Below the pieces are notes generated by a model that was given only the letters and a program-made list of their open reading frames with translations, did no database searches and was not told the origin of the DNA. A program made the translations under genes and the position numbers. A stretch of DNA of 46,663 nt from positions 1 to 46,663 of the forward strand of contig JANXBJ010000007.1 in the NCBI GenBank assembly GCA_025057645.1, read 5' to 3'. This document shows positions 8,179-23,191 of the stretch, piece after piece; within the stretch, counting starts at the first letter, position 1, and each line of letters starts with the position of its first letter. Source of the DNA: Anaerolineales bacterium (GTDB taxonomy: Bacteria > Chloroflexota > Anaerolineae > Anaerolineales > UBA4823).

Positions 8179-8583
8179 ATGCGTACAAAACTCTCTCTCC
8201 AAACGGTTCGTGGCGAGTTCGTAAACCGCATTGAAACCATCAGCGGCCAAAGTTTATTAGCTTGTAACCAGTGTGGGAAGTGCAGCGCAGGTTGCCCGGT
8301 GGCCTTTAGCATGGATGTTTTGCCCAACCAAGTGATCCGTATGGCGCAACTGGGACTGGAAGACGCTCTGCAAGTACAGACCATCTGGACCTGTGCAGCT
8401 TGTTTAACCTGCGTCTCCCGCTGCCCAAAGGGGATTGACCTGCCACGCATGATGGAAGCTTTGCGCCAAATCTACATGGAAAAGTTCGGCAACGTGTTAG
8501 ACCCCAACCAAATTGCCCCTGAACAAGCAGCCGAGATGCCCCAATTGGCACTCATCGGTGGCTTCCGCAAGTATTCTCTTTAA
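8179..8583 (+). CDS. hdrC: HdrC-like iron-sulfur subunit, module 1
   Basis: This 134-residue ferredoxin-like protein has two CX2CX2CX3CP motifs, Cys 29/32/35/39 (CNQCGKCSAGCP) and Cys 72/75/78/82 (CAACLTCVSRCP), each able to hold one [4Fe-4S] cluster. That spacing and the CSAGCP wording are characteristic of HdrC, which carries electrons between HdrA flavin and the HdrB active site in heterodisulfide reductases. It is soluble and lacks the cytochrome fusion seen in HdrE/DsrM systems. It is the first gene of the operon and is followed after 11 bp by hdrB. The ATG is preceded by TGAGGTAGG. Confidence 0.92.
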   Translation: MRTKLSLQTVRGEFVNRIETISGQSLLACNQCGKCSAGCPVAFSMDVLPNQVIRMAQLGLEDALQVQTIWTCAACLTCVSRCPKGIDLPRMMEALRQIYMEKFGNVLDPNQIAPEQAAEMPQLALIGGFRKYSL

Positions 8584-8594
8584 GAGAGGAGGGC

Positions 8595-9488
8595 ATGGCT
8601 ATCCCTTATTTTCCCGGCTGTACCTTATCCACTAAAGCCAGCGGTTACGATCGCTCTGGGCGAGCTGTTGCCCAAGCGCTAGGTCTAGAATTCCAAGAAC
8701 TAAACGAGTGGCAATGTTGCGGCGCCACCTTCCCGCTTTCCGCCGAGAATGCCATGGCCCTGGTCGCCCCGACGCGCTTGCTGCGCCAAGCACAGGACGC
8801 CGGCGGGCAGGTAACTACCTTGTGTGCCATCTGCTTCCACGTCCTGCGCCGCACGCAACATTTTCTGCAAGGACATCCCGACGTGCTGGAGCGCATCAAT
8901 TGGTTTACCGAAGAGCCTTACCTCGGCAATGTGCGCGTTACCCACTTTCTGGAGTTGCTGCGCAATGAACTCACATGGGAAAGTCTGAGGGCGAAGGTTA
9001 GACGACCGCTCCAGGGCTTAAGGGTCGCTCCGTATTACGGTTGCCTGTTGCTGCGCCCACCGAGCGAAATTCAATTGGATGACCCCGATGACCCGCACAT
9101 TCTGCATGAATGCTTGGAAGCTTTGGGCTGTGAGGTGATCACTTTCCCCTATCAATCGGAATGCTGCGGCTCGTATTTGGTGGTCAACAAGCCTAAAGTG
9201 CCGCAGCAATTGGCGCAGGACATTCTTACTTCCGCGCAACGCCATGGCGCCCAGGCGTTGGTCACCGCTTGCCCCCTTTGTCAATACAACCTCGATTACC
9301 CGCAGAAGTCAGTTAGCGGCTGGACGCTCAAACTCCTGCCGGTGCTGTACTTCACGCAGTTGATGGCGGTCGCTCTGGGTTTGCCAAGCGAGGATTGGGG
9401 CATGGAAAACCACACAGTGGATCCCCGCCCGCTCTTTGAACCCTATCTTACAACCGTTGGCCAAGGCCGGACGGGAGGCGACAGATAA
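8595..9488 (+). CDS. hdrB: HdrB-like CCG-domain subunit, module 1
   Basis: The protein has 297 residues with two complete CCG domains. The first is C9, C41-C42, C77 and C80 (spacing CX31CCX34CX2C). The second is the YYGC...ECCG...CPLC set (CX39CCX34CX2C). In methanogen HdrB these cysteines bind two non-cubane [4Fe-4S] clusters that cleave a heterodisulfide, and here all ligands are present, so the catalytic chemistry should be intact. The natural substrate in a bacterium without CoM/CoB is unknown. AGAGGAGGG precedes the ATG. The stop overlaps the next start by one base (TAATG), which implies translational coupling. Confidence 0.93.
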   Translation: MAIPYFPGCTLSTKASGYDRSGRAVAQALGLEFQELNEWQCCGATFPLSAENAMALVAPTRLLRQAQDAGGQVTTLCAICFHVLRRTQHFLQGHPDVLERINWFTEEPYLGNVRVTHFLELLRNELTWESLRAKVRRPLQGLRVAPYYGCLLLRPPSEIQLDDPDDPHILHECLEALGCEVITFPYQSECCGSYLVVNKPKVPQQLAQDILTSAQRHGAQALVTACPLCQYNLDYPQKSVSGWTLKLLPVLYFTQLMAVALGLPSEDWGMENHTVDPRPLFEPYLTTVGQGRTGGDR

Positions 9489-10891
9489 TGATTGAACGGG
9501 CTTTAGTGGTTGGAGCAGGGATTGCCGGCATCCAAGCCGCGTTAGATATTGCCAACAGCGGCTATGAAGTGGTTCTGGTCGAGCGGGAGCCATCCATCGG
9601 TGGTCACATGGCGCAACTTTCGGAGACCTTTCCCACGCTGGACTGCTCACAGTGTATCCTCACGCCGCGCACGGTCGAAGCCGGCAAGCATGAGAAGATC
9701 CGTCTTTATACCTACAGCGAAATCGACTCTGTCCGACAAGATGAAAACGGCGACTTTCTTGTCCGCATCCGCCGCAAGGCTGCCTATATAAATTGGGATC
9801 TCTGCACCGGCTGCGGTGTCTGTCAGGAAAAATGCCCCTTCAAGGTTGAGTCGCTCTTCGAGCGCGGCGTCGGGACACGCAAAGTGATCTATACCCTCTC
9901 GCCGCAAGCAGTGCCGAACAAGCCGGTGATCGATGCCGCAAACTGTCGCTATTTGCAATCCAAATGGGATATTGAAGCCGGTCGCATTCCCGCAGTGGAC
10001 GCAAAGGGCAACCCAGCTAAACCGAAGTGCGGCGCCTGCGAGAAGTTCTGCCCCACCGGCGCTATCCAGTGGGATCAGACTGATACCTTTCACGAAGAAA
10101 AAGTCGGGGCAGTAATCCTCGCCACCGGCTATGACCTCTTTCCGCAATCTCGACTGCCCGAATATGGCGGCGGCAGGATTCCCGATGTGATCGATGGCTT
10201 AGCTTTTGAGCGCTTATTAGCTGCCAGCGGACCAACTGCAGGTAAAATCCTGCGCCCTTCCGATGGAAAGCCGCCGCTAGAGGTGGTCTTTATTCAGTGC
10301 AGCGGCTCGCGCGATCCCGAACGCGGCGTTCCCTATTGCTCGAAAATCTGCTGCATGTACACAGCAAAGCAGGCGATTCTCTACAAACATCGCCTGCACG
10401 AAGGGCAAGCTTATGTTTTCTATATCGATGTGCGCGCTGGCGGCAAGGGATACGAGGAGTTTGTTAACCGGGCAATGGAAGAAGAGGGCGTGGTCTATCT
10501 GCGTGGTAAGGTGAGCAAGCTCTTCCGTGAAGGCGACAAGGTAATCGTCAAAGGGGTGGATACGCTCAGCAATCGCACGGTAGAAATCGCCGCCGATTTG
10601 GTGGTTTTGGCGACCGCCATTATCCCGCGGGCGACCAACCCCCAAGTGGCTGAGCTGTTTGGCGTCCCTTACGATGAAAACGGCTTTTACAGCGCCGCCA
10701 ATGAGGAATTAGACCCCGTGCTAAGCCTCGCTCCGCGCGTCTTTATGGCGGGAGCGGCTCTAGGCCCGAAAGATATCCCCGAAACGGTGGCACAAGCCAG
10801 CGGTGCGGCAGCAAAGGTGCTTTCGCTCTTTCAAAGGCAACGCCGTACCCAAAAGGAAGCCCAAGGCGTTTTGGAAGCCGTGGCTGATTGA
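9488..10891 (+). CDS. hdrA: HdrA-like flavoprotein, first half (HdrA'), module 1
   Basis: The protein has 467 residues. It begins directly with the HdrA FAD domain (GAGIAG at 9-14) and lacks the usual N-terminal CHCG domain. It carries C53/C56 (DCSQC), a ferredoxin motif C106/109/112/116, and C153 plus C181/184/188 as a further cluster set. The HdrA-specific segment CSGSRD...YCSKICCMYTAKQA and the C-terminal GPKDIPETVAQASGAAAKV are clear. In HdrABC complexes this flavin is the site of electron bifurcation. It ends 11 bp before the next HdrA gene, which supplies the missing CHCG and C-terminal ferredoxin domains. The two together therefore look like one split HdrA or an HdrA heterodimer. Confidence 0.92.
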   Translation: MIERALVVGAGIAGIQAALDIANSGYEVVLVEREPSIGGHMAQLSETFPTLDCSQCILTPRTVEAGKHEKIRLYTYSEIDSVRQDENGDFLVRIRRKAAYINWDLCTGCGVCQEKCPFKVESLFERGVGTRKVIYTLSPQAVPNKPVIDAANCRYLQSKWDIEAGRIPAVDAKGNPAKPKCGACEKFCPTGAIQWDQTDTFHEEKVGAVILATGYDLFPQSRLPEYGGGRIPDVIDGLAFERLLAASGPTAGKILRPSDGKPPLEVVFIQCSGSRDPERGVPYCSKICCMYTAKQAILYKHRLHEGQAYVFYIDVRAGGKGYEEFVNRAMEEEGVVYLRGKVSKLFREGDKVIVKGVDTLSNRTVEIAADLVVLATAIIPRATNPQVAELFGVPYDENGFYSAANEELDPVLSLAPRVFMAGAALGPKDIPETVAQASGAAAKVLSLFQRQRRTQKEAQGVLEAVAD

Positions 10892-10902
10892 GGAGAAAAC
10901 AG

Positions 10903-12642
10903 ATGAGTCGGATCGGGGTCTTCGTCTGTCACTGTGGACATAACATCGCCGGGACGGTGGATGTCAAAGCGGTGGTCGAGCAATTGCAGCGCAACGGCGA
11001 TGTGGTTTTTGCCATCGACTACAAATACATGTGTTCCGATCCCGGCCAGCAGTTGATTCGCGAGAGCATCGAAAAATATCAGCTTGACGGCGTGGTGGTG
11101 GCAGCTTGCTCTCCCGCCATGCACGAAACCACCTTCCGGCGCACGGTTTCGGCAGCCGGGCTGAACGGATTTCGTTGCGAGTCGGCAAATATTCGTGAGC
11201 AGGTCTCTTGGGTTCATCAGCAAGACAAAGAAGCAGCGACCCAAAAGGCAATCGAAATTACCGCATCGATTGTGGAGAAAGTCAAGGGGAACGAGATATT
11301 AGAACCCTTGGTGTTGCCTTTGACCCATCGCACGCTGGTGATCGGTGGCGGAATTGCTGGCATGCAAGCTGCCCTCGACATTGCTGAAGCCGGCTATCCG
11401 GTCATTTTGGTCGAACGCCATGATCATCTTGGTGGAAGGATGGCAGAATTGAGCGGCAGCTATCTGAACTTTCGAGCTGCTCCTGATTTGCTGGAGAAGA
11501 AAATCCAACAGGTCCTCTCCCATCCCAACATTCAGACCCTGCGAAACGCCGAAGTGATCGGCCTCTCGGGCTATGTGGGTAACTTTCGCGTCCAAGTCAA
11601 GCAAAATCCTGAGGCCGAGGAGACGCCGGTGATGCCTTTGGACGAGTTGCAACCCCTAACCTTTACCTTCGACGTCGGTGCGATTGTGGTCGCCACCGGC
11701 TGGCAACCTTATGACCGCGCTCGGTTGCCTGAATACGGCGGTGTAGAAATCCCCGATGTGGTGGACGGCTTGACCTTCGAGAAAATGCTGCGCGAAGGAG
11801 GTGTCCTCCGCCGCCCTTCAGATGGCAAGATCGCCTGTGAGGTGGTTTTTGTGCAGTGCGCCGGCTCACGTGACCCCGAACACGGCGTCTCTTATTGTTC
11901 AAAGGTCTGTTGTATGTATGTTGCCAAGCAAGCCATGATGTACAAAGAGCGCGTCCCCGATGGCCAAGCGTATGTCTTCTACATCGACATCCGCTCAGCA
12001 GGCAAAAACTATGATGAATACGTTCAGCGTGCCATGACCGATTACGGTGTGCTGTATTTGCGCGGCAAGGTCAGCCGCGTTTTCCGCGAGGGTGATCAGA
12101 CCATCGTTTGGGGCAGCGATACCCTGACCGGACGGGCGGTGGAAATCGCCGCCGATCTGGTGGTTTTGGCGACCCCGATGCTGCCTTCCCGTGGTTCGGC
12201 CGAGTTGGGTCAACTGTTGCACATCAGCACCGATGGCTACGGTTTCTTCAACGAAGCGCACCCCAAACTGCGTCCGGTGGAAACCTTGACCGCCGGGATT
12301 TACCTAGCCGGCGTGGCGCAAGGTCCAAAAGATATTCCCGAAACTGTTTCACAAGCCTCCGGCGCGGCGGCTAAGGTCTTACAGCTCTTCTCCAAAGATG
12401 AAATGACTGCCTCACCGCTGGTTGCCAGCGTCATCGAAGAGTTGTGCGCTGCCTGCGGCGCCTGTGTCAAGGTCTGCCCCTACGGTGCGCGCCAAATTCA
12501 CCCGATTTGGAATTACGCCACGGTCAATGCTGCTCTATGTCAAGGCTGTGGTGCCTGTGTGGTCGCCTGTCCCAACAAAGCCAGCCAAGTGCGCAATTGG
12601 CGTGTCGAGCAGGTGATGGGGATGGTGGATAGGTTGTTATGA
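10903..12642 (+). CDS. hdrA: HdrA-like flavoprotein, second half (HdrA''), module 1
   Basis: The protein has 579 residues from the ATG at 10903, with AGGAGA six bases upstream; an in-frame TTG at 10888 is less likely. The N-terminal HdrA domain has CHC at 9-11 and C44, C69. The FAD motif GGGIAG lies at 148-153, the segment CAGSRD...YCSKVCCMYVAKQA is present, and two C-terminal ferredoxin motifs lie at about 515-526 and 546-557. It lacks the DCxxC element after the FAD motif that HdrA' has. The domain order matches the second half of the 1507-residue HdrA further on. The stop codon lies inside the first unit of a heptamer repeat that begins the four-helix-bundle cassette. Confidence 0.92.
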   Translation: MSRIGVFVCHCGHNIAGTVDVKAVVEQLQRNGDVVFAIDYKYMCSDPGQQLIRESIEKYQLDGVVVAACSPAMHETTFRRTVSAAGLNGFRCESANIREQVSWVHQQDKEAATQKAIEITASIVEKVKGNEILEPLVLPLTHRTLVIGGGIAGMQAALDIAEAGYPVILVERHDHLGGRMAELSGSYLNFRAAPDLLEKKIQQVLSHPNIQTLRNAEVIGLSGYVGNFRVQVKQNPEAEETPVMPLDELQPLTFTFDVGAIVVATGWQPYDRARLPEYGGVEIPDVVDGLTFEKMLREGGVLRRPSDGKIACEVVFVQCAGSRDPEHGVSYCSKVCCMYVAKQAMMYKERVPDGQAYVFYIDIRSAGKNYDEYVQRAMTDYGVLYLRGKVSRVFREGDQTIVWGSDTLTGRAVEIAADLVVLATPMLPSRGSAELGQLLHISTDGYGFFNEAHPKLRPVETLTAGIYLAGVAQGPKDIPETVSQASGAAAKVLQLFSKDEMTASPLVASVIEELCAACGACVKVCPYGARQIHPIWNYATVNAALCQGCGACVVACPNKASQVRNWRVEQVMGMVDRLL

Positions 12643-12664
12643 GTTATGAGTTATGAGTTTTGAG
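12637..12664 (+). repeat. Heptamer tandem repeat, left flank of the four-helix-bundle cassette
   Basis: TTATGAG is repeated three times without a gap (12637-12643, 12644-12650, 12651-12657), followed by the variant TTTTGAG (12658-12664) and a degenerate GTTTGG. The first unit overlaps the hdrA'' stop codon. The complement (CTCAAAA type) matches the repeat family on the right side of the same gene, so the two arrays are in inverted orientation. Confidence 0.85.
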
Positions 12665-12689
12665 GTTTGGTTGCAGGTTTAGGGTAGAG

Positions 12690-13142
12690 ATGCAAGATTA
12701 TAAGAAGCTAAGAGTTTGGGAAAAGAGTCATTGGCTTGCTCTTGAGATTTACCGTATAACGGCAAATTTCCCAAAGGAGGAACAATATGGCCTAACGAGC
12801 CAACTCCGCCGCTCCGCTATATCGATTTCGACCAACATTGCTGAAGGTTGTGGGCGGGGAGGGAATTATGACTTACAACGCTTCTTGTCCATTGCGATTG
12901 GCTCGGCGATGGAAACAGAATGCCTGATCCTATTAGCGCGTGACTTGGGATTTCTCTCAACAGAGGGTTACCAAAATCTAGCGATCCAAATTGAGTCGAT
13001 TAGGCAAATGCTCATCGCCTTATACAAGAAAACGAAAAAACCAAAGAGCAATACCTTCAATTTCAGAAACCGAGATCCTGAATCCAAAACCCAAAACTCA
13101 AAACCCAGAACCCAAAACCAACTAAAAAAGGCTGAGGTATGA
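12690..13142 (+). CDS. Four-helix-bundle (S23/IVP-type) protein
   Basis: The protein has 150 residues. QDYKKLRVWEKSHWLALEIY, SAISISTNIAEGCGR and the helical stretch to about 120 are the hallmarks of the small four-helix-bundle proteins first found in 23S rRNA intervening sequences and also related to the Avd accessory protein of diversity-generating retroelements. No reverse transcriptase is nearby, so the function is unknown. The last 20 or so residues (for example KTQNSKPRTQNQ) are translated from a right-hand heptamer repeat array, not from a conserved domain. ATG 12690 begins the conserved part. The stop overlaps the hdrC2 start by four bases (ATGA). It interrupts an otherwise redox-only operon, which suggests insertion of a cassette. 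Confidence 0.88.
   Translation: MQDYKKLRVWEKSHWLALEIYRITANFPKEEQYGLTSQLRRSAISISTNIAEGCGRGGNYDLQRFLSIAIGSAMETECLILLARDLGFLSTEGYQNLAIQIESIRQMLIALYKKTKKPKSNTFNFRNRDPESKTQNSKPRTQNQLKKAEV
13084..13118 (+). repeat. Heptamer tandem repeat, right flank of the four-helix-bundle cassette
   Basis: There are five consecutive 7-bp units: CCAAAAC, CCAAAAC, TCAAAAC, CCAGAAC and CCAAAAC (13084-13118). They form the 3' coding end of the four-helix-bundle gene. In complement they read GTTTTGG or GTTTTGA, matching the left array TTTTGAGGTTTGG in inverted orientation (14 of 16 positions agree between GAGTTTTGAGGTTTGG and the complement of 13084-13099). Confidence 0.85.
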
Positions 13143-13720
13143 GCTTGAATTTTCACGAACAGATTGCCAAAGTAAGCAACCAATCCATCCTACTGTGCTA
13201 CCACTGCCACAAATGCACCGCCGGATGTCCGGTGGCGGCGGAGATGGAGTATGGCCCGGATCGCATTCTGCGCATGGTGCAACTGGGTGAGCGGGAGAGA
13301 GTGCTGAAGAGCCGCGACATTTGGCTGTGTGCGGCTTGCGAGACCTGCGGCGCGCGCTGCCCAAACCATATCAATGTTGCCAAGGTAATCGATGCCTTGC
13401 GCATGGAAGCCTTGCGCAGCGGCGTGACGCCTGCCGAACCCGATGCGGCGAAATTCCACAAGCTCTTCCTGTTTGTGGTGCAAACGCTGGGACGCAGCCA
13501 TGAAGCCAGCCTGTTGATCGCCTATAAACTCTGGACATTGAACCTACTTGCAGATATGGACAGCGGCTTGCAACTGTTCCTCAAAGGCAAAGTGCCCGTC
13601 TTGCCCAAAACGATCAAGGGGCGCGGGCAGGTCAAACGCATCTTCGTCAAGTCCGCCGAAGCGGTTGCCAAAAGGGCACCCTCCTCTGCCAACCTCGCTC
13701 CTGCGCAGGAGGTGCAATGA
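13139..13720 (+). CDS. hdrC: HdrC-like iron-sulfur subunit, module 2
   Basis: The protein has 193 residues with two CX2CX2CX3CP motifs, Cys 20/23/26/30 (CYHCHKCTAGCP) and Cys 64/67/70/74 (CAACETCGARCP). It is a paralogue of the first hdrC but has a C-terminal extension of about 60 residues that is basic and helical and whose role I do not recognise. Its ATG overlaps the four-helix-bundle stop and its own stop overlaps hdrB2 by four bases (ATGA). Its ribosome site GAGG lies within the end of the upstream cassette gene. Confidence 0.92.
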   Translation: MSLNFHEQIAKVSNQSILLCYHCHKCTAGCPVAAEMEYGPDRILRMVQLGERERVLKSRDIWLCAACETCGARCPNHINVAKVIDALRMEALRSGVTPAEPDAAKFHKLFLFVVQTLGRSHEASLLIAYKLWTLNLLADMDSGLQLFLKGKVPVLPKTIKGRGQVKRIFVKSAEAVAKRAPSSANLAPAQEVQ

Positions 13721-14592
13721 ACGCCTACACCTATTACCCGGGTTGCAGCCTCGAGTCCACTGCCTGTGAATATGACGCCTCGGTGCGCGCCGTGTTCCAA
13801 GCCCTGGAAGTCGAATTGCATGAACTCGAAGAGTGGAACTGCTGCGGCGCTTCATCTGCCCATAGTGTCAATCCCTTGCTGGCACTCGCTCTGCCGGCGC
13901 GCAATCTGGCACTCGCCCAACCGATTGGTTACGATCTGGTCATGCCCTGTGCGGCCTGTTTCAACCGCCACAAGAGCGCCGACCACGCATTGCGCCACGA
14001 CCCCGAACGGCGCAAAGAATTAGAAGAAATTGTCGGTTTCACCTATCAAGGGAATGTGGCTGTGCGCCCCTTACTTGAAGTGCTGACCGTTGGCGTCGGG
14101 TTCGAGCGCATTGGCGAGCGGGTGACTCGCCCACTAGAGGGTCTTAAGGCGGTGGGCTATTACGGCTGTCTCCTGGTTCGTCCGCCTGATGTAACCCAAT
14201 TCGAGAACCCCGAAAACCCGAGCTTAATGAATCAACTACTGGAAACCTTAGGCGCTAAAGCGGTCGAATGGTCGTATGCCACGGAGTGCTGCGGCGGTGG
14301 GCTTTCGCTGACCAAATCGAGCGTTGCCGCCCGCTTGGTCAACCGCTTGGCGGAGCGCGCCAGAGAAGCCGGCGCAGAGGCGATCGTCACCAGTTGTCCT
14401 TTATGCCAGATCAATCTTGAAATGCGCCAGAGTGGCAAACAGAAAATGCCCGTCTTTTACTTTACCGAACTGATGGGCTTGGCTTTTGGGCTGCCCGAGG
14501 CGGAAGCCTGGTGGAGCAAACACTTAATTGAGCCACGCCCCCTGCTAGCGGAGATCAAATCTCTGCGCCGAGCTATGGTCGGACGAGGATGA
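13717..14592 (+). CDS. hdrB: HdrB-like CCG-domain subunit, module 2
   Basis: The protein has 291 residues with both CCG domains intact: C10, C42-C43, C78 and C81 in the first (CX31CCX34CX2C), and YYGC...ECCG...CPLC in the second. It is a close paralogue of the first hdrB, with shared wording such as YYGCLL and FTELM versus FTQLM near the end. It is expected to carry non-cubane [4Fe-4S] clusters for disulfide or two-electron chemistry. It is translationally coupled on both sides by ATGA overlaps. Confidence 0.93.
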   Translation: MNAYTYYPGCSLESTACEYDASVRAVFQALEVELHELEEWNCCGASSAHSVNPLLALALPARNLALAQPIGYDLVMPCAACFNRHKSADHALRHDPERRKELEEIVGFTYQGNVAVRPLLEVLTVGVGFERIGERVTRPLEGLKAVGYYGCLLVRPPDVTQFENPENPSLMNQLLETLGAKAVEWSYATECCGGGLSLTKSSVAARLVNRLAERAREAGAEAIVTSCPLCQINLEMRQSGKQKMPVFYFTELMGLAFGLPEAEAWWSKHLIEPRPLLAEIKSLRRAMVGRG

Positions 14593-17500: not shown

Positions 17501-19112
17501 GGTGAACGTGCCCGAAGTAGTTGAATATGCCAAGAGCCTGCCCGCTGTGGTCTATGCCGAGCGTAACCTCTATACCTGTTCTCAAGATACCCAGCAGAAG
17601 ATCGTTGCCAAAATTCAAGAACACAATCTCAACCGCGTCGTGGTTGCCAGTTGTACTCCACGCACGCACGAACCGCTCTTCCAAGACACCATCCGCCAAG
17701 CAGGCTTGAACCCGTATTTGTTCGAGCTGGCTAACATCCGCGAACAGGACGCCTGGGTGCATCGAGCAACGCCGCAAGTCGCCACCGAGAAGGCAAAGGA
17801 ACTGGTGGCAATGGCCGTTGCCAAAGCGCGCCGGTTGCGCCCTATCCAGCGCGGCAGCTTTGACGTGGCTCACCAAGCCTTGGTCATTGGCGGCGGATTG
17901 GCCGGTATGACCGCTGCGCTCTCGATCGCCCGTCAAGGCTTCCCCGTCTATCTGGTCGAGCGCCAAGCCGAATTGGGCGGTAACCTACGCCACATTACCG
18001 TAGGCTTGGATGGCACCGACCCACAACAGTTGCTCCGAGACCTGATCGCCGCAATCCGCGATGAGCCGCGGATCACCGTCTTGACCGAGTGCGAGGTCGT
18101 GGAAACGCGCGGCTATGTCGGGCAATATACTTCGGTAGTCCGCCATGCGAATGGTTCTTGTGAAGAGTTGACCCACGGCGCCATCGTGGTCGCCACCGGC
18201 GGACGAGAGATTCCGACGCGCCTCTATGGTTATGGTGAAACCGCTGGCGTTATAACCCAGCGCGAACTCGAAAGCTGGCTAAAGGAGCACGATGAGGCTC
18301 CCGAATCGGTGGTTATGATCCAATGTGTCGATTCGCGCGATGACGATCATCCTTATTGCTCGCGTATCTGCTGTACGCAAGCGATCAAAAACGCCCTTGA
18401 GATCAAACGACGCAACCCGCATAGCCGCATTTATATCCTCTACCGTGATCTGCGTAGCTATGGCTTCCGCGAAGGCTACTACACCGAAGCGCGTCGTCAA
18501 GGGGTGGTCTTCCTGCAATACGCCGCTGAACAGCCGCCGCGAGTTGAACAAACCCCTGATAGAAGGCTATGGGTGCATGTCCTCTCCCAGCCCGAGGGGG
18601 AAGAAGTCCATTTATGTGTTGCGCAGGTGGTCTTGAGCGTGGGCATTGAGGCAGAGCCGGGCAATGAAGCCTTGAGCCGCTTGTTGAAGCTACCACTCAC
18701 GGCAGAAGGGTTCTTCCTTGAAGCACATGTCAAACTTCGCCCGGTGGATTTTGCCGCCGATGGCATTTACCTTGCTGGCCTAGCCCACTCGCCGCGCTCG
18801 ATCGATGAAACCATCGCCCAAGCGCAGGCGGCGGCAGTGCGGGCGGTCTCTCTGCTGGCGAAGAAACAGCTCACTGCCACGCCGATCATCGCTTCGGTCA
18901 ACCCGCGCTTGTGTTCGGCTTGCGGTTTGTGTGTCGAAGTCTGTCCGTATAGCGCCCGCCGTTTGCAGCCCGGCGCAGCCTATGCCGAAGTGGTTGCCGT
19001 GTTATGCCAAGGCTGCGGCGCCTGCGTGGCAGCTTGCCCTAACAAAGCCAGTCAACAGTTGGGCTTTGAGTTCCTACAAATCAGCGAGATGATCGATACG
19101 GCTCTAGCGTGA
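14589..19112 (+). CDS. hdrA: Giant HdrA'::GltD-HdrA'' fusion flavoprotein
   Basis: This is a single 1507-residue reading frame, far above the usual 340-670 for HdrA. Domains in order: HdrA FAD lobe (GAGIGG at 30-35, DCAMC at 73-77), ferredoxin motif 126-137, then an inserted GltD-like unit at about 174-582 with its own Fe-S cysteines (176-227), FAD motif GAGPAG 280-285, NAD(P) motif GGGNVAID 413-420 and GGGDVVTGTSF 553-563. An Ala/Lys-rich linker follows at about 583-630, a Cys-rich segment 652-668, the rest of HdrA' (748-931), the HdrA N-domain with CHC at 962-964, a second HdrA FAD lobe (GGGLAG 1101-1106), and two ferredoxin motifs at 1442-1453 and 1473-1484. It could thus bind three flavins and accept electrons from NAD(P)H. 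It is coupled to hdrB2 by an ATGA overlap. Confidence 0.93.
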   Translation: MNNWEAGMSAARFLTPQPLGQPTGAVMVVGAGIGGIQASLDLAEAGFKVYLVEKSPAIGGIMAQLDKTFPTNDCAMCIMSPKLVEVGRHLNIEILTTSEIEGIEGEAGHFRVKVRRHPRYVKLDACTGCGDCATVCPVTRPDEFNSGLSQRKAIYKPYPQAIPNAYAIEKAGMAPCRDACPINQRAQGYIALIKEGRFLDAYRTIKEDNPFPSVCGRVCNHRCEEACSRNQSDQPVNIMALKRFVTDWVWSKIEGGELDIEQLCQRSKVEPKGKRVAIVGAGPAGLTAALDLVRMGYSVTVFEALPVAGGMMRVGVPEYRLPYELVQREIDQILAEGIELRLNTRVENVPALLHQGYDAVFVAIGAHCGVKLPIPGADLPQVTVATEFLRRVSLGEKSKVAEDIKGKRVLVLGGGNVAIDVAMSAVRLGASWVGMACLESRETMPAHDWEVRDAEEEGIAIYPSRTFKEITQEEGRVTGVRCVQVNFRGFIDGRPDFDEIPNTEEVIPADVVIFAIGQRPELECLNGEVETVRGRLLKVDEQTLATNVPGIFGGGDVVTGTSFIVNAIAAGHRAAQSIDRYLRGEPLAAPKARPPKVELSQAEVAARLLESAAARKARVETKARPAAERKLDFSEVYAGLTEEEARAEAARCLSCGICSECLQCVYACRAKAIDHNQVETIEEIEVGAVLLAPGVQPLSDQIRPEYGYRRYPNVLTSIEFERMLSASGPFAGVIQRPSDGRHPEKIAWIQCVGSRDNACGQGYCSSVCCMYATKEAVIAREHDSHIQPTIFYMDIRAFGKGFDAYIARAEQEQGVRYVRSMVSSVREVPGSRNLRVSYVTFTAEGKPVPHEEEFDLVVLSVGLKPTPEAVETARRLGIDLNPFGFAESPHYLPTQTNREGIFVAGAFGEPKDIPETVIEASCAAAQASALLAEGRGTLTRQAVYPPERDISGEEPRVGVFVCHCGINIGGVVNVPEVVEYAKSLPAVVYAERNLYTCSQDTQQKIVAKIQEHNLNRVVVASCTPRTHEPLFQDTIRQAGLNPYLFELANIREQDAWVHRATPQVATEKAKELVAMAVAKARRLRPIQRGSFDVAHQALVIGGGLAGMTAALSIARQGFPVYLVERQAELGGNLRHITVGLDGTDPQQLLRDLIAAIRDEPRITVLTECEVVETRGYVGQYTSVVRHANGSCEELTHGAIVVATGGREIPTRLYGYGETAGVITQRELESWLKEHDEAPESVVMIQCVDSRDDDHPYCSRICCTQAIKNALEIKRRNPHSRIYILYRDLRSYGFREGYYTEARRQGVVFLQYAAEQPPRVEQTPDRRLWVHVLSQPEGEEVHLCVAQVVLSVGIEAEPGNEALSRLLKLPLTAEGFFLEAHVKLRPVDFAADGIYLAGLAHSPRSIDETIAQAQAAAVRAVSLLAKKQLTATPIIASVNPRLCSACGLCVEVCPYSARRLQPGAAYAEVVAVLCQGCGACVAACPNKASQQLGFEFLQISEMIDTALA

Positions 19113-19152
19113 ACCCGGGTCTCTCGAGGAAACAAAGCCAAGGAGCAAACCA

Positions 19153-19599
19153 ATGGCAGAAACCACGAAAGCAGAAACAACCCAATTTGAACCCAAGATC
19201 ATCGCCTTTCTGTGCAATTGGTGTACCTACACCGGCGCCGACTTAGCCGGCACCAGCCGCTTACAGTACCCCCCTAACATACGCATCATCCGCTTGATGT
19301 GCAGCGGCGCAGTCGACCCGATGTACGTCCTCAGAGCGACCCTAGGCGGGGCCGATGGCGTCTTGATCGGCGGTTGCCACCCCGGTGACTGTCACTATCA
19401 AGAAGGGAACTACAAGGCCCGACGGCGAGTGATCGCTCTCAAGGAAATCCTGAAGAGCGCCGGCTTTGACGAAGAGCGCATCTGGTTGCGCTGGATCAGC
19501 GCCAGCGAAGGGGCACGCTTTGCCGAGACGGTGCGCGAGATGACCGAGGCAATGCGCGCCAAAGGCCCGAACCCGATGAAACAAGCGTGGGCGGTATAG
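19153..19599 (+). CDS. mvhD: MvhD/FrhD-like [2Fe-2S] electron-transfer subunit
   Basis: The protein has 148 residues with the five conserved cysteines of MvhD: C21 and C24 (CNWC), C50 (MCSG), C75 and C80 (GGCHPGDC). In methanogens MvhD bridges the [NiFe] hydrogenase or formate dehydrogenase to HdrA via a [2Fe-2S] cluster. No hydrogenase large or small subunit is encoded in this window, so here it probably connects HdrA to the FrhB-like or other partner. AAGGAG lies upstream of the ATG. The 40-bp gap to hdrA is the longest inside this part of the operon, but no terminator is seen there. Confidence 0.92.
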   Translation: MAETTKAETTQFEPKIIAFLCNWCTYTGADLAGTSRLQYPPNIRIIRLMCSGAVDPMYVLRATLGGADGVLIGGCHPGDCHYQEGNYKARRRVIALKEILKSAGFDEERIWLRWISASEGARFAETVREMTEAMRAKGPNPMKQAWAV

Positions 19600-19652
19600 C
19601 ACTGCAGCCGGTCTAACGAACTGACGTAATGAACGGAGATGGAAAAGACGCT

Positions 19653-20759
19653 ATGAAGATTTCTTTGTCGGTTGAGAACAGAAATCCGCTAGCTACGTTA
19701 CAGAATTTCTTGAAAAGCTTTCTGGAAAGGCAAATCGTTGACGTGCTGCTCACCCCTATGCGCACTCCAAGCAATTCGGTAACCCCAGCTCTGGTCAGCG
19801 ATCCTGCGCTGCTCAACCGGGCTGATCCCCTGGCGCCCGTCTTGCCGGTCAATGCTGCCACCTGGGCAGGCAAGATCAGCTTGCGCCAACCGCGGCCGAA
19901 AGCTGCGGCTGTGTTACGCCCTTGTGAGGCTCGCGCTCTGGTCGAGCTGACCAAAATGGCACAAGCCAGCTTAGATGATCTGCTGGTCATCGCCCTTGAT
20001 TGTGCCGGCACCTATACTCCGGCCACCTTTCTGCACAAGCAGATGCAAAACGATCATCCGTTGTGGGTGGATCTATATGCAGCCGTCTGCCAGAAGCCTG
20101 AGTCACCCAACCTGGAACTGCGCCCTGCTTGCCAAATCTGCGAGCAACCAGTCTTTGAGAGTGCGCCGATCCGCCTATGTCTGTTTGAAAGCGATTTGGA
20201 GCGCACCCTGATCGTTGAAGTACGGGACGAAATTGCCCAAAAACTTAACCTGACGGGCGAAGCCACGAACGGACGCTCTCCAGAAATAGAGGCATTCATC
20301 GCTGCCCGGACTCAGGCGCGCGATCGAGCCTTTGCCGAAATCCGGGCACGCTTGGAAGGCGAAGAGGGAATTGCGGGTGTATTTGCCGCCTGTATTCGCT
20401 GCCACAACTGCATGACTGTCTGTCCGATCTGTTATTGCAAGACCTGCGTGTTCAGGAGTCATGTTTTTGACCACGATCCGATGAAATATGTGCAATGGGC
20501 TCGCCAAAAAGGTGCCCAACGGATGCCGCCGGACACAATGCTCTTTCATCTCACCCGCCAGAACCACATGGCTCTCTCTTGTGTCGGTTGCGGCATGTGC
20601 ACCGATGCATGTCCTTCCGAGCTGCCGGTCGGTTTAGTTTTCCGAGCTGTAGCACAGCGCTTACAGCACACTTTCGACTATCTGCCCGGGCGCAAAGTCG
20701 AAGAACCCTTGCCCTTGATCACGTTCAGGGCTGATGAATGGACTGAAGTTGGAGAGTGA
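19653..20759 (+). CDS. FrhB/FdhB-like iron-sulfur oxidoreductase subunit
   Basis: The protein has 368 residues. The N-terminal part resembles the FrhB/FdhB fold, with the conserved RPCEARALVEL segment at about 89-99. Two CX2CX2CX3CP ferredoxin motifs lie at C247/250/253/257 and C310/313/316/320, and extra cysteines follow the first (PICYCKTC). Family members bind flavin and exchange electrons with F420, ferredoxin or formate dehydrogenase, so here it may be the docking site for an external low-potential donor or acceptor. The start is uncertain: ATG 19653 follows GGAAAAG, whereas the in-frame ATG 19629 has no ribosome site. Confidence 0.82.
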   Translation: MKISLSVENRNPLATLQNFLKSFLERQIVDVLLTPMRTPSNSVTPALVSDPALLNRADPLAPVLPVNAATWAGKISLRQPRPKAAAVLRPCEARALVELTKMAQASLDDLLVIALDCAGTYTPATFLHKQMQNDHPLWVDLYAAVCQKPESPNLELRPACQICEQPVFESAPIRLCLFESDLERTLIVEVRDEIAQKLNLTGEATNGRSPEIEAFIAARTQARDRAFAEIRARLEGEEGIAGVFAACIRCHNCMTVCPICYCKTCVFRSHVFDHDPMKYVQWARQKGAQRMPPDTMLFHLTRQNHMALSCVGCGMCTDACPSELPVGLVFRAVAQRLQHTFDYLPGRKVEEPLPLITFRADEWTEVGE

Positions 20760-20777
20760 CTTCTCACAGGAGGGCAT

Positions 20778-21461
20778 ATGGCTGAACGAAACGACCTGGT
20801 CCCGATATATATCATGGGCAAACGTTACGATGTGCCTTCGAGCTTGACCATTATGAAAGCCATGGAATACGCCGGATATACGCTGATCCGAGGCGTAGGC
20901 TGCCGCAGTGGCTTCTGCGGCGCCTGTTCGACCGTGTATCGCATTAAGGACGATCCCAAACTTTACTTCGGGTTAGCCTGCCAGACGGTTGTCAAGCCAC
21001 ATATGTACTTGGGTCAGATTCCTTTCTTCCCGGCGAAACGCGCCACCTATGACATCGCTCAACTTCAGGCGCAAGCTTCAACGCTCTTCCAACTCTATCC
21101 GGAAATCTTGCGCTGTTTGGGATGTGGCACCTGTACTAAAGCCTGTCCTCAGCAACTGAATGTCAAGGGCTATATGGCAGCAGCCATGCGCGGCGATATT
21201 GCTGCGGTGGCCAACCTCTCCTTTGATTGCATCATGTGTGGTCTTTGCGCTGCACGCTGTCCGGCCGAAGAACCTCAATATAACATTGCCATCCTGGCCC
21301 GACGCCTATATGGACGCTATCTTTCCCCTCGCTCGGATCACCTTCACAAGCGCGTTGAGGAGATCCAACAGGGCGTCTTCGACCAGAGCATCGCCGAGCT
21401 AAAAGCAATGGATGTGAACGAATTGAAAGAACGCTACAAGGCTCGGCAAATCGAAGCCTAG
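20778..21461 (+). CDS. Fumarate reductase/succinate dehydrogenase-type Fe-S subunit (soluble)
   Basis: The protein has 227 residues. An N-terminal plant-type [2Fe-2S] domain has C42, C47, C50 and C68 (GCRSGFCGAC, then LACQT). A C-terminal dicluster domain has C113/116/119/123 and C151/154/157/161. Classical SdhB has [2Fe-2S], [4Fe-4S] and [3Fe-4S] sites; here both C-terminal motifs look like [4Fe-4S] sets, as in HdrC or thiol:fumarate reductase subunits. It should pass electrons to or from the flavoprotein encoded next. AGGAGGG precedes the ATG. No membrane anchor subunit gene is present. Confidence 0.87.
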   Translation: MAERNDLVPIYIMGKRYDVPSSLTIMKAMEYAGYTLIRGVGCRSGFCGACSTVYRIKDDPKLYFGLACQTVVKPHMYLGQIPFFPAKRATYDIAQLQAQASTLFQLYPEILRCLGCGTCTKACPQQLNVKGYMAAAMRGDIAAVANLSFDCIMCGLCAARCPAEEPQYNIAILARRLYGRYLSPRSDHLHKRVEEIQQGVFDQSIAELKAMDVNELKERYKARQIEA

Positions 21462-21470
21462 GAGGCCGAC

Positions 21471-23072
21471 ATGACCTACACACCCGAACTGCTCGAGCTG
21501 ATCAAAGTGGTCGAAGCCACCCGCCCACAGCGTTTGGGGCAAACGTTCCCTCCGATGCCTTTGGAAGAACGTCAAGAGCTGCTCCAGAAGTTTCACCCAG
21601 ATTACATCGAGTCGGGGATGCGGGAGATCCGCATCGGGAGTTACAAAGGGAAGCGCATGCCCAAGGAATTAGCCGATGTGGTCGAAGGACGGCCACACGT
21701 CGATCCCAATTTCGACCTGAGCAACCCGGAGTTCGAAACCGATGTCCTGGTTATCGGAGGAGGCGGTGCCGGAGCGAGTGCTGCCCTCTTAGCCCAAGAG
21801 CATGGGGCAAAGGTCACGCTGGTCACAAAGCTGCGCTTTGGGGATGCCAACACCATGATGGCCCAGGGCGGCATTCAGGCTGCCGACCGTCCCGAAGACT
21901 CGCCGGCGCTTCACTATCTGGACGTCATCGGCGGTGGACACTTCACCAACTTCCCCGACCTGGTGGAAGCCTTGGTCAAAGACGCGCCGATTGTCATCGC
22001 TTGGCTAGAAAGTTTGGGTGTCATGTTCGACAAAACCCCCGATGGGGTGATGATGGAAGAACACGGCGGCGGCACAAGCATTAAGCGCATGCACTCAGCG
22101 CGCGATTACACCGGCGCCGAGATTATGCGTGTCTTACGTGATGAAGTGCGCAACCGCCCGAATATCGATGTGATTGAGTTTTGTCCTGCGGTTGAGTTGG
22201 TTCTAGATGATAAAGGGGCAGTTTGCGGGGCGATTCTAATGAATTTTGAGACCGAACGCTATTTCTACGCCAAAGCAAAAGTGGTGGTCTTGGCAACCGG
22301 TGGCAGCGGACGCTTGCACTATCAAGGCTTCCCGACAACGAACCACTATGGTGCCACCGGCGATGGCATTGTCCTAGCGTATCGCGCCGGAGCTGAACTC
22401 GTCTTCCTGGACACAATGCAATATCATCCTACCGGTGCAGCCTATCCGGAACAAATTTTAGGACAGTTAGTTACCGAAAAAGTGCGCGGTTTGGGCGCGC
22501 AACCGGTGAATGTCAAGGGTGAGCAATTTGTCTATCCCCTGGAACCGCGCGATGTCGAGTCCGCAGCCTTCATTAGGGAGTGTAAGGAGCGCAACCTAGG
22601 TGTGATCACGCCCAGCGGGCAGCCAGCGGTTTGGCTGGATACACCGATGATCGACCTGATCCACGGCCCAGGCACGATCGAAAAAGCCCTGCCGGCCATG
22701 GTGCGGCAGTTTAGGCGCTTCAACATCGACATGGTGCGCCAACCAATCTTGGTCTACCCCACCTTGCACTATCAAAACGGCGGCGTGAAGATCGATGCCG
22801 ATTGTCGCACTACTGTACCAGGCTTATTGGTCGCCGGTGAGACCAGCGGTGGCGTGCATGGGCGTAACCGCCTGATGGGCAACAGTCTGTTAGATGTATG
22901 CGTCTTCGGCCGGCGGGCAGGCATCACCGCCGCAGCGCTGGCAAAAGAGCGTCAACCGGGCAAGCCCACTCTTGCTCACCTCGAAAGTTGGAACCGAGCG
23001 CTGGACGAGATCGGCCTCAACGGCGCAGTTCGTTCCCCGATCCTAATCCCCAACTATGCTCGCAAGGGCTAA
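21471..23072 (+). CDS. Fumarate reductase/succinate dehydrogenase-type flavoprotein (soluble)
   Basis: The protein has 533 residues. The FAD motif GGGGAG lies at 96-101 after an unusual 90-residue N-terminal extension. Residues equivalent to the E. coli SdhA dicarboxylate site are all present: H319 (QYHPTG), R339 (VTEKVRG), H433 (LHYQNGG) and R467 (GRNRLMGNSLL). The position of the covalent-flavin histidine is N127 (ANTMMAQGGI), so FAD is predicted to be non-covalent, as in soluble fumarate reductases and L-aspartate oxidase. L-aspartate oxidase and APS reductase are alternatives, but the Fe-S partner and Hdr context favour fumarate/succinate, as in methanogen thiol:fumarate reductase. TAGGAGG precedes the ATG. 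It is the last gene of the operon. Confidence 0.87.
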   Translation: MTYTPELLELIKVVEATRPQRLGQTFPPMPLEERQELLQKFHPDYIESGMREIRIGSYKGKRMPKELADVVEGRPHVDPNFDLSNPEFETDVLVIGGGGAGASAALLAQEHGAKVTLVTKLRFGDANTMMAQGGIQAADRPEDSPALHYLDVIGGGHFTNFPDLVEALVKDAPIVIAWLESLGVMFDKTPDGVMMEEHGGGTSIKRMHSARDYTGAEIMRVLRDEVRNRPNIDVIEFCPAVELVLDDKGAVCGAILMNFETERYFYAKAKVVVLATGGSGRLHYQGFPTTNHYGATGDGIVLAYRAGAELVFLDTMQYHPTGAAYPEQILGQLVTEKVRGLGAQPVNVKGEQFVYPLEPRDVESAAFIRECKERNLGVITPSGQPAVWLDTPMIDLIHGPGTIEKALPAMVRQFRRFNIDMVRQPILVYPTLHYQNGGVKIDADCRTTVPGLLVAGETSGGVHGRNRLMGNSLLDVCVFGRRAGITAAALAKERQPGKPTLAHLESWNRALDEIGLNGAVRSPILIPNYARKG

Positions 23073-23143: not shown

Positions 23144-23191
23144 TAACCAAAAAGCAGGCCGTTCAGAGAGCAACGGCCTGCTTTTTGGTTA
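23144..23191. terminator. Strong bidirectional intrinsic terminator ending the Hdr/Frd operon
   Basis: TAACCAAAAAGCAGGCCGTT at 23144-23163 is perfectly complementary to 23172-23191, with an 8-nt loop. The GC core AGCAGGCCGTT is followed on the plus strand by TTTTT, a textbook Rho-independent terminator; the minus strand gives the same. It lies 72 bases after the flavoprotein stop. Confidence 0.93.

What the first reader, a model, noticed from the sequence alone, without database searches (positions are those of the whole stretch)
8179..23072. A 15-kb all-soluble operon joins two Hdr modules to MvhD, an FrhB-like protein and a FrdAB-like pair
Directly seen: about eleven redox genes packed with 1-50 bp gaps or ATGA/TAATG overlaps, ending in one strong terminator, with no hydrogenase catalytic subunit and no Sdh membrane anchor. 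Known: HdrABC-MvhD does flavin-based electron bifurcation in methanogens, and thiol:fumarate reductase couples Frd-like and HdrB-like subunits. Inference: this operon may encode a cytoplasmic complex that bifurcates or confurcates electrons among NAD(P)H (GltD domain), a low-potential carrier (FrhB-like/MvhD) and fumarate/succinate. I know of no characterised complex with this exact composition.
Basis: partly seen in the sequence, partly recalled or inferred. Interest (0 to 1): 0.92.

Follow-up and report, generated by a model that had tools for sequence, protein, structure and literature searches.

The report
Soluble Hdr-linked fumarate reductase operon
A Chloroflexota bacterium carries one long operon that seems to wire a water-soluble fumarate reductase to an electron-splitting enzyme core known from methane-making archaea; related gene sets occur in several phyla, and they may let anaerobes gain energy from making succinate without a membrane enzyme.

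Summary
It is not a one-genome accident: FrdA relatives occur in 46 of 298 class genomes (own included), and 60 of 75 testable FrdA loci have hdr/mvhD genes within 6.5 kb, against 1 of 21 ordinary SdhA loci. The block mvhD-fdhB-frdB-frdA recurs in 32 of 112 loci (Chloroflexota, Bacillota, archaeal MAGs). FrdA keeps the catalytic fumarate-reductase residues but not the covalent-FAD histidine. All four HdrA flavin domains keep the two residues proposed to mark bifurcation. The "FrhB-like" protein belongs to the FdhB/ElpB donor-arm family, so it is more likely a mid-potential entry than a low-potential site. Best reading: a cytoplasmic flavin-based bifurcating (or, in reverse, confurcating) fumarate reductase. 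That general idea is already in print for a Clostridium relative (Flx-Hdr plus Frd) and for rTCA clusters. New here: the duplicated-Hdr, GltD-containing, FlxA-less version, its spread, and its anticorrelation with membrane SDH. No biochemistry was done.

The parts
8179..8583 (+). hdrC1, 134 aa, two CX2CX2CX3C motifs
   Evidence: Pfam 4Fe-4S dicluster; motifs
8595..9488 (+). hdrB1, 297 aa, two CCG motifs; NCBIfam scores it slightly nearer to SdhE of 8-methylmenaquinol:fumarate reductase than to HdrB, both under cut-off
   Evidence: CCG E 3.5e-21; 165.3 vs 148.5 bits; motifs
9488..10891 (+). hdrA1a, 467 aa: flavin domain with inserted ferredoxin region; lacks the N- and C-terminal Fe-S domains of HdrA
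   Evidence: matches HdrA 152-301 and 303-568 of 8rvu; K409/E356 equivalents kept
10903..12642 (+). hdrA1b, 579 aa: N-terminal domain, flavin domain without the inserted ferredoxin, C-terminal ferredoxin
   Evidence: matches HdrA 13-247 and 321-651 of 8rvu; K409/E356 equivalents kept
12690..13142 (+). 23S-rRNA-IVP-like four-helix protein, 150 aa; probably a passenger (ORF may start at TTG 12660)
   Evidence: PF05635 E 1.2e-37
13139..13720 (+). hdrC2, 193 aa, two CX2CX2CX3C motifs
13717..14592 (+). hdrB2, 291 aa, two CCG motifs
   Evidence: CCG E 8.4e-25
14589..19112 (+). hdrA2, 1507 aa: HdrA1a-like flavin domain with a GltD-type NAD(P)H domain inserted in its ferredoxin region, fused to an HdrA1b-like half
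   Evidence: HdrA segments at 25-170, 658-882, 953-1111, 1363-1503; GltD-type domain about 169-682; four motifs CX2CX2CX3C
19153..19599 (+). mvhD/flpD, 148 aa
   Evidence: PF02662 E 1.7e-52
19629..20759 (+).
   Evidence: profile match to 9t1s_M, 8rvu_E, 7bkb_E; Foldseek top hits 7bkb_E and 8rvu_E, TMq 0.71 and 0.69
20778..21461 (+). frdB, 227 aa: one 2Fe-2S motif and two CX2CX2CX3C motifs
21471..23072 (+). frdA, 533 aa: FRD/SDH-type flavoprotein without covalent-FAD His, with about 85 extra N-terminal residues and without the C-terminal domain of SdhA/NadB
   Evidence: PF00890 E 3.3e-74
23149..23190 (+). intrinsic terminator hairpin (coordinates approximate)
   Evidence: -36.2 kcal/mol, z -7.55

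Best explanation
The operon encodes a cytoplasmic Hdr-type flavin-based electron-bifurcating complex whose high-potential end is a soluble fumarate reductase. Proposed flow: electron pairs enter through the FdhB/ElpB-like subunit and MvhD and/or through the GltD-type NAD(P)H domain of HdrA2, and are split at HdrA flavins. The high-potential electron goes through HdrC/HdrB to FrdB and FrdA, reducing fumarate to succinate. The low-potential electron leaves through the inserted ferredoxin domain of HdrA1a to ferredoxin. In reverse it would oxidise succinate by confurcation. Shown: gene content, order, conservation, catalytic and cofactor-ligand motifs, absence of anchors. Inferred: that the proteins form one complex, that it bifurcates, the donor, and the direction (reductive preferred).
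For: Linkage: 60 of 75 FrdA loci with at least 6.5 kb upstream have hdr or mvhD genes within 6.5 kb, against 1 of 21 canonical SdhA loci, Fisher p 2.6e-10. Order mvhD-fdhB-frdB-frdA in 32 of 112 distinct loci. Substrate: FrdA residues H319, T321, R360, H433, R467 kept in 113 of 113 and E336 in 112 of 113 sequences; fumarase-like genes on the same strand in 29 of 112 loci, directly before the hdr genes in L042, L046, L062 and L047. FrdB and HdrB2 match the two ends of one characterised protein, TfrB (19-89 and 266-484 of 488). Bifurcation: K409/E356 equivalents in all four HdrA flavin domains, two residues discussed as bifurcation markers (PMC12054007, sections 6 and 8). Modularity: the same genome has HdrCBA-MvhD next to a Vhu-type [NiFe] hydrogenase, and HdrA-MvhD-HdrA(GltD)-HdrCB next to a MetF-type protein. 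Replacement of complex II: canonical SDH in 4 of 18 FrdA-positive and 30 of 42 FrdA-negative class genomes, p 0.0006.
Against: No biochemistry, expression or complex data. 15 of 75 testable FrdA loci have no hdr/mvhD gene within 6.5 kb, so this FrdAB can occur without a linked Hdr. In 17 of 112 loci the donor side is of the Flx kind and in 11 of 112 hdrC-hdrB lie directly beside frdB-frdA. This genome is an exception to the SDH anticorrelation: it has sdhCDAB and a heme-copper oxidase. I saw no fumarase gene beside the operon; the fumarase found in the genome is on another contig. K/E conservation is also reported in HdrA proteins of untested function. The SDH counts ignore shared ancestry and use one SDH query at E 1e-150.
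Confidence: 0.5

Rival explanations
1. Thiol-driven fumarate reductase: HdrB clusters oxidise or reduce a thiol/disulfide carrier, as in methanogen thiol:fumarate reductase, and FrdAB takes the electrons; the HdrA parts serve to exchange electrons with NAD(P)H or ferredoxin without true bifurcation.
For: Both HdrB proteins keep both CCG motifs. FrdA scores best with the TfrA model (334.7 bits, cut-off 718) and FrdB/HdrB2 map on TfrB. In 11 of 112 loci hdrC-hdrB lie directly beside frdB-frdA. A DsrC-family protein exists in the genome.
Against: Coenzymes M and B are not expected in bacteria (recalled). The DsrC-like protein has Cys at 50 and 101 only, lacking the second C-terminal Cys of redox DsrC (sequence; the motif is recalled). 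The HdrA flavin domains keep the bifurcation-marker residues.
Confidence: 0.18
2. Reverse direction: a confurcating succinate dehydrogenase that oxidises succinate and sends electrons to a mid-potential acceptor, driven by reduced ferredoxin, in propionate- or amino-acid-oxidising or syntrophic cells.
For: FRD/SDH chemistry is reversible; relatives occur in Syntrophomonadaceae, Syntrophobacteraceae and Desulfofundulus MAGs or strains; FrdA-positive class genomes mostly lack canonical SDH.
Against: Ruminococcus flavefaciens FD-1 (L151), recalled as a succinate producer, carries the Flx type; P. thermosuccinogenes is described as using such an operon for succinate formation (PMC7282089, passages). 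This genome has a canonical SDH for the oxidative direction.
Confidence: 0.17
3. FrdA is not a fumarate reductase but an L-aspartate oxidase or another FAD_binding_2 reductase acting on a different unsaturated acid.
For: The nadB model scores 290.5 bits, not far under TfrA; besides itself, one search found only the canonical SdhA; the substrate was not tested.
Against: NadA not found in a 95.75 % complete genome; frdB and frdA are adjacent in 106 of 112 loci; fumarase neighbours; at the NadB Glu121 column (residue recalled) this family has Gly (alignment).
Confidence: 0.08
4. The operon is a historical collection: separate Hdr and Frd enzymes co-transcribed for regulation but not physically joined.
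For: An unrelated IVP gene sits inside, other unrelated genes sit inside relatives' operons, and 15 of 75 FrdA loci lack linked hdr/mvhD.
Against: Conserved order across phyla; minimal hdrC-hdrB-frdB-frdA units; TfrB joins both parts in one protein.
Confidence: 0.07

Closest known systems
Flx-Hdr plus fumarate reductase 'succinate operon' of Pseudoclostridium thermosuccinogenes (PMC7282089, passages; it cites a 2019 preprint, not seen)
   Same: Fumarate reductase genes together with an Hdr-type NADH dehydrogenase/heterodisulfide reductase complex; coupling of fumarate reduction to ferredoxin reduction was proposed there; fumarase in the operon
   Different: There the donor side is Flx; the window has no FlxA gene in the operon (the nearest homologue in the genome is on C11 beside a hydrogenase), two HdrCB sets, split HdrA pairs, a GltD insertion, and an FdhB-type subunit
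flxABCD-hdrABC interspersed with tfrAB and korABCD in rTCA clusters (PMC6315080, passages)
   Same: Frd-like and Hdr genes interspersed; a joint complex was suggested
   Different: Includes 2-oxoglutarate:ferredoxin oxidoreductase genes; different hosts; donor side is Flx
Methanogen HdrABC with MvhAGD, FdhAB-MvhD or ElpABC (PMC12350162, passages; PDB 5odc, 7bkb, 8rvu)
   Same: HdrA/B/C, MvhD and an FdhB/ElpB homologue
   Different: Acceptor there is CoM-S-S-CoB; the window has FrdAB, no FdhA/ElpA among the operon proteins, and two unlike HdrA halves instead of one full HdrA
Thiol:fumarate reductase TfrAB
   Same: Frd-type flavoprotein, and an iron-sulfur protein plus a CCG protein matching the two ends of TfrB
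   Different: Separate genes, with HdrA, MvhD and FdhB-like partners; far under the TfrA/TfrB cut-offs
Type II and type III HdrA of methane-metabolising archaea (PMC12054007, sections 6 and 8 plus passages)
   Same: Two flavin domains in one chain (type II); GltD inserted in the ferredoxin region (type III)
   Different: HdrA2 here combines both features; the paper's class A9 may already do so (a variant is named A9-TRX-C), which I could not check; no fumarate reductase there (0 occurrences of 'fumarate')

Membership tests
HdrABC-MvhD flavin-based bifurcating complexes | HdrA flavin domain with K409 and E356 equivalents | tested here: met
   Kept in all four HdrA flavin domains (residues named)
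HdrABC-MvhD flavin-based bifurcating complexes | HdrB with two CCG domains, HdrC with two 4Fe-4S motifs, MvhD | tested here: met
HdrABC-MvhD flavin-based bifurcating complexes | Coupled reduction of ferredoxin and a high-potential acceptor | not testable with these tools
   needs enzyme assay
Flx-Hdr-Frd succinate operon | FlxA-type NAD-binding subunit in the operon | tested here: not met
   None of the operon proteins is FlxA-like by Pfam/NCBIfam; best homologue in the genome is on C11
Flx-Hdr-Frd succinate operon | FrdAB of the same family linked to HdrABC and MvhD | tested here: met
   FrdA of the named Flx-type loci is 57-64 % identical and in the same tree; the P. thermosuccinogenes sequence itself was not compared
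Canonical complex II (SdhABCD / QFR) | Covalent-FAD histidine | tested here: not met
   Asn at that column in 113 of 113, His in the genome's SdhA
Canonical complex II (SdhABCD / QFR) | Membrane anchor | tested here: not met
Canonical complex II (SdhABCD / QFR) | [3Fe-4S] ligand pattern in the B subunit (pattern recalled) | tested here: not met
   Second motif is CX2CX2CX3C; two strict motifs in 90 of 105 FrdB, and in 5 of the 15 others, the ones I printed, all eight Cys are present
Thiol:fumarate reductase (TfrAB) | Score over the TfrA/TfrB equivalog cut-offs | tested here: not met
   334.7 against 718; FrdB 35.7 against 385
Thiol:fumarate reductase (TfrAB) | CoM-SH/CoB-SH oxidation | not testable with these tools
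   needs enzyme assay
L-aspartate oxidase (NadB) | Score over the nadB cut-off and NadA in the genome | tested here: not met
   290.5 against 452.75; NadA 0 hits
FdhB/ElpB subunit family | Nearly full-length relation to FdhB/ElpB of Hdr complexes | tested here: met
FdhB/ElpB subunit family | Use of F420 | tested here: inconclusive
   CofD over cut-off in 1 of 18 FrdA-positive class genomes, which is this genome

The most novel reading that the evidence does not exclude
A soluble, energy-conserving stand-in for complex II with two unlike bifurcating halves: one HdrA pair (1a/1b) delivers low-potential electrons to ferredoxin, the fused HdrA2 pair uses its GltD domain as an NAD(P)H port, and both share one donor arm (MvhD plus an FdhB-like subunit without FdhA) and one fumarate site, so that a single complex balances NAD(P)H, ferredoxin and fumarate through up to four HdrA flavins. 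In Anaerolineae-type bacteria it replaces the membrane succinate dehydrogenase.
Probability: 0.25. Interest if true: 0.85.

Novelty: new variant of a known kind. Interest (0 to 1): 0.6.

Why it matters
If true, fumarate reduction, usually thought of as membrane respiration, would in many anaerobes drive ferredoxin reduction in the cytoplasm. That would change energy budgets for succinate-forming fermenters (including a Ruminococcus that carries the Flx type) and for subsurface Chloroflexota. Flow from NADH to fumarate drops about 353 mV (E0' -320 and +33 mV, values seen in PMC5861303 passages), enough on paper to lift a second pair to about -500 mV. The family is easy to recognise (N-terminal extension with an invariant His-Pro-Asp in the 16 aligned sequences; no FAD histidine) and occurs in cultured strains, so the question is directly testable.

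Tried and rejected
Canonical membrane SDH/QFR rejected: no anchors, no FAD-His, two full 4Fe-4S motifs. L-aspartate oxidase disfavoured: NadA not found, FrdB partner, Gly at the Glu121 column. Strict F420 dependence disfavoured for the family: CofD over cut-off in 1 of 18 FrdA-positive genomes, this one. NADH versus NADPH not settled: the second GltD motif is GGGNVA (GxGxxA, the form that PMC12054007 sets against the NAD-type GxGxxG), but the Arg pair seen in the window's other GltD-like protein is replaced here (LES). A first linkage count was too high (67 of 74; 66 of 75), because seven and six loci, respectively, were counted for a free-standing GltD-like protein; recounted to 60 of 74 and 60 of 75. 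In seven of the latter 60 (L036, L087, L090, L092, L100, L140, L149) no HdrA or MvhD but only HdrB/HdrC-type genes lie within 6.5 kb. The tree label E carries the same fault, so I draw no conclusion from that label. The single control hit is a CCG-type protein (388 aligned residues, 34.5 %) beside the genome's own SDH. Papers: searched; the phrases and the term set gave 0 papers.

Full report
Observation. The window lies in a 3.1-Mb draft genome of 63 contigs, 95.75 % complete. The operon genes between 8179 and 23072 are all on the + strand, with gaps from -4 to +47 nt, and a hairpin of -36.2 kcal/mol follows frdA. Pfam and NCBIfam confirm two HdrC, two HdrB, two single HdrA-type proteins, one HdrA-type fusion, MvhD, an FdhB/FrhB-type protein, a ferredoxin/dicluster protein and an FRD/SDH flavoprotein. 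A 23S-rRNA-IVP-like gene lies in the middle.

Anatomy of the Hdr parts. HdrA1a matches methanogen HdrA from the flavin domain through the inserted ferredoxin, without the N- and C-terminal parts. HdrA1b has the N-terminal domain, the flavin domain without the inserted ferredoxin (HdrA positions 248 to 320 are skipped), and the C-terminal ferredoxin. The two are complementary. HdrA2 is the same pair in one chain, with a GltD-type domain inserted in the ferredoxin region (GltD match 169-682). The fusion suggests that 1a and 1b work as a pair (inference). In all four flavin domains the residues equivalent to K409 and E356 of M. thermolithotrophicus HdrA are Lys and Glu; PMC12054007 (sections 6 and 8 read) reports these as proposed marks of bifurcating HdrA and describes two-flavin (type II) and GltD-containing (type III) HdrA in archaea, the latter possibly using NADH.

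The FrhB-like protein. Pfam gives only a weak FrhB_FdhB_C hit (E 0.0017), but a profile of 18 sequences matches, over nearly full length, FdhB or FdhB-like subunits of methanogen Hdr complexes (9t1s_M 1.1e-46, 8rvu_E 4.2e-37, 7bkb_E 1.3e-36), and the AlphaFold2 model (mean pLDDT 83.6) finds 7bkb_E and 8rvu_E first. 8rvu is the Elp-Hdr complex, in which ElpB takes a hydride from F420H2 and ElpC (MvhD-like) passes electrons on to HdrA (PMC12350162, passages). So MvhD plus this protein look like a donor arm. F420 itself is doubtful for the family: CofD is over cut-off in 1 of 18 FrdA-positive class genomes, which is this genome, and in 19 of 42 FrdA-negative ones.

The Frd parts. FrdA is nearest to FRD, SDH and NadB flavoproteins; its model (mean pLDDT 82.4) finds E. 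coli FrdA first (1kf6, TMq 0.70). In 113 distinct sequences the residues at H319, T321, R360, H433 and R467 never vary and E336 varies once; Asn stands where the genome's SdhA has the FAD histidine (the roles of these residues are recalled). The matches to 5kxj, 1chu and 1nek start at residue 84 to 86 and leave out 118 to 169 residues at the C-terminus of those chains, so this FrdA has an extra N-terminal part and no C-terminal domain of that kind. FrdB has a 2Fe-2S motif and two four-cysteine motifs.

Conservation. FrdA has matches at E 1e-80 or better in 46 of 298 genomes of the class, own included, and in none of the 19 same-order genomes listed. By record title or the tree's labels they include Bacillota, Chloroflexota, Fusobacteriota, Synergistota, Spirochaetota, Planctomycetota, Thermodesulfobacteriota and MAGs labelled Thermoplasmata, Methanomassiliicoccales and Euryarchaeota. 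From 120 loci (40 fetched) 112 distinct FrdA remain. The order mvhD-fdhB-frdB-frdA is found in 32 of 112; the Flx order mvhD-flxCBA-frdB-frdA in 17; hdrC-hdrB directly beside frdB-frdA in 11 (contigs are often short, so these are lower bounds). Flx names follow NCBIfam matches of two of the three proteins to sulfhydrogenase/AsrA/AsrB-type subunits and published usage. With free-standing GltD-like proteins no longer counted as HdrA, 60 of 75 loci with at least 6.5 kb upstream have HdrA, HdrB, HdrC or MvhD within 6.5 kb; 15 do not. Among 21 canonical SdhA loci with about 5 to 7.6 kb on each side, one has such a gene; Fisher p 2.6e-10. On the same strand within 14.5 kb, 60 of 74 loci have HdrA or HdrB, 48 MvhD, 29 the FdhB-like gene, 18 FlxA, 22 and 21 the two fumarase genes. 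One of the two fumarase genes was confirmed by Pfam (PF05683); the other is named by position and recall. An HdrA with GltD inside was found in 12 of the 112 loci.

Context in the genome. Other Hdr loci hold MetF-type, HdrCB, HdrA(GltD), MvhD and HdrA genes on C62, and HdrCBA-MvhD beside a Vhu-like [NiFe] hydrogenase on C11. The genome also has sdhCDAB, a heme-copper oxidase, fumarase on another contig and a DsrC-family protein; NadA was not found. In 60 class genomes the family's FrdA and canonical SDH tend to exclude each other (SDH in 4 of 18 FrdA-positive against 30 of 42 others, p 0.0006), with this genome among the four exceptions. Shared ancestry is not corrected for.

Phylogeny. In an FrdA tree of 114 rows the window groups with L073 (Anaerolineales UBA4823, 87 % identical), and both the window-type and Flx-type labels are clustered (12 changes against a shuffled mean of 33.1; 4 against 19.5, quick method). 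One label of that tree (E) was later found faulty and is not used.

Mechanism. Steps shown: composition, order, conservation, ligand and catalytic residues. Steps inferred: complex formation; donor through the FdhB-like/MvhD arm or the GltD domain; splitting at HdrA; exit through HdrA1a to ferredoxin and through HdrC/HdrB and FrdB to FrdA. The link HdrB-FrdB is supported by TfrB, whose two ends match FrdB and HdrB2.

What is known. PMC7282089 (passages) describes an operon of fumarate hydratase, NADH dehydrogenase/heterodisulfide reductase complex and fumarate reductase, about 4-fold up at low CO2 (not significant for all subunits), and assumes coupling to ferredoxin, citing a 2019 preprint that I could not see. 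PMC6315080 (passages) suggests a complex of Flx-Hdr with TfrAB and KorABCD. I therefore rate this a new variant of a known, though unproven, kind. The paper searches are listed under Tried and rejected; most subscription journals and bioRxiv preprints are outside that library.

Noticed in passing
12690-13142; also L034:11744-12205, L065:7651-8121, L044:6281-6727: 23S-rRNA-IVP-like four-helix genes sit inside or just behind several Hdr/Frd operons at different positions.
   Followed up: no
L043:10650-13559: A FGGY kinase and a RuBisCO-family large-subunit protein lie between hdrA2 and mvhD in one relative.
   Followed up: no
L042:14144-14779, L043:13583-14233 and other loci: A CBS-domain (ACT-like tail) protein gene precedes mvhD in some relatives; such genes were seen in 9 of 74 loci. 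The window operon lacks it.
   Followed up: no
L041:14445-16727: A NACHT/HEAT-repeat protein gene separates frdB from frdA in one relative.
   Followed up: no
L169 (own genome C62:34000-53000): A second Hdr cluster joins a MetF-type protein with HdrCB, HdrA(GltD), MvhD and HdrA, like a bifurcating methylene-THF reductase; in L077 and L084 a similar HdrA-MvhD-HdrA set follows frdA.
   Followed up: partly
L089, L101, L112, L121, L142, L146: In these Bacillota and Syntrophomonadaceae MAGs the family's frdBA follows fumarase genes and a free-standing GltD-like protein, without hdr genes within the stretch examined.
   Followed up: partly
4690-6123 (-): A separate GltD/DPD-type NAD(P)H oxidoreductase gene with the usual Arg pair lies upstream on the other strand.
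   Followed up: no
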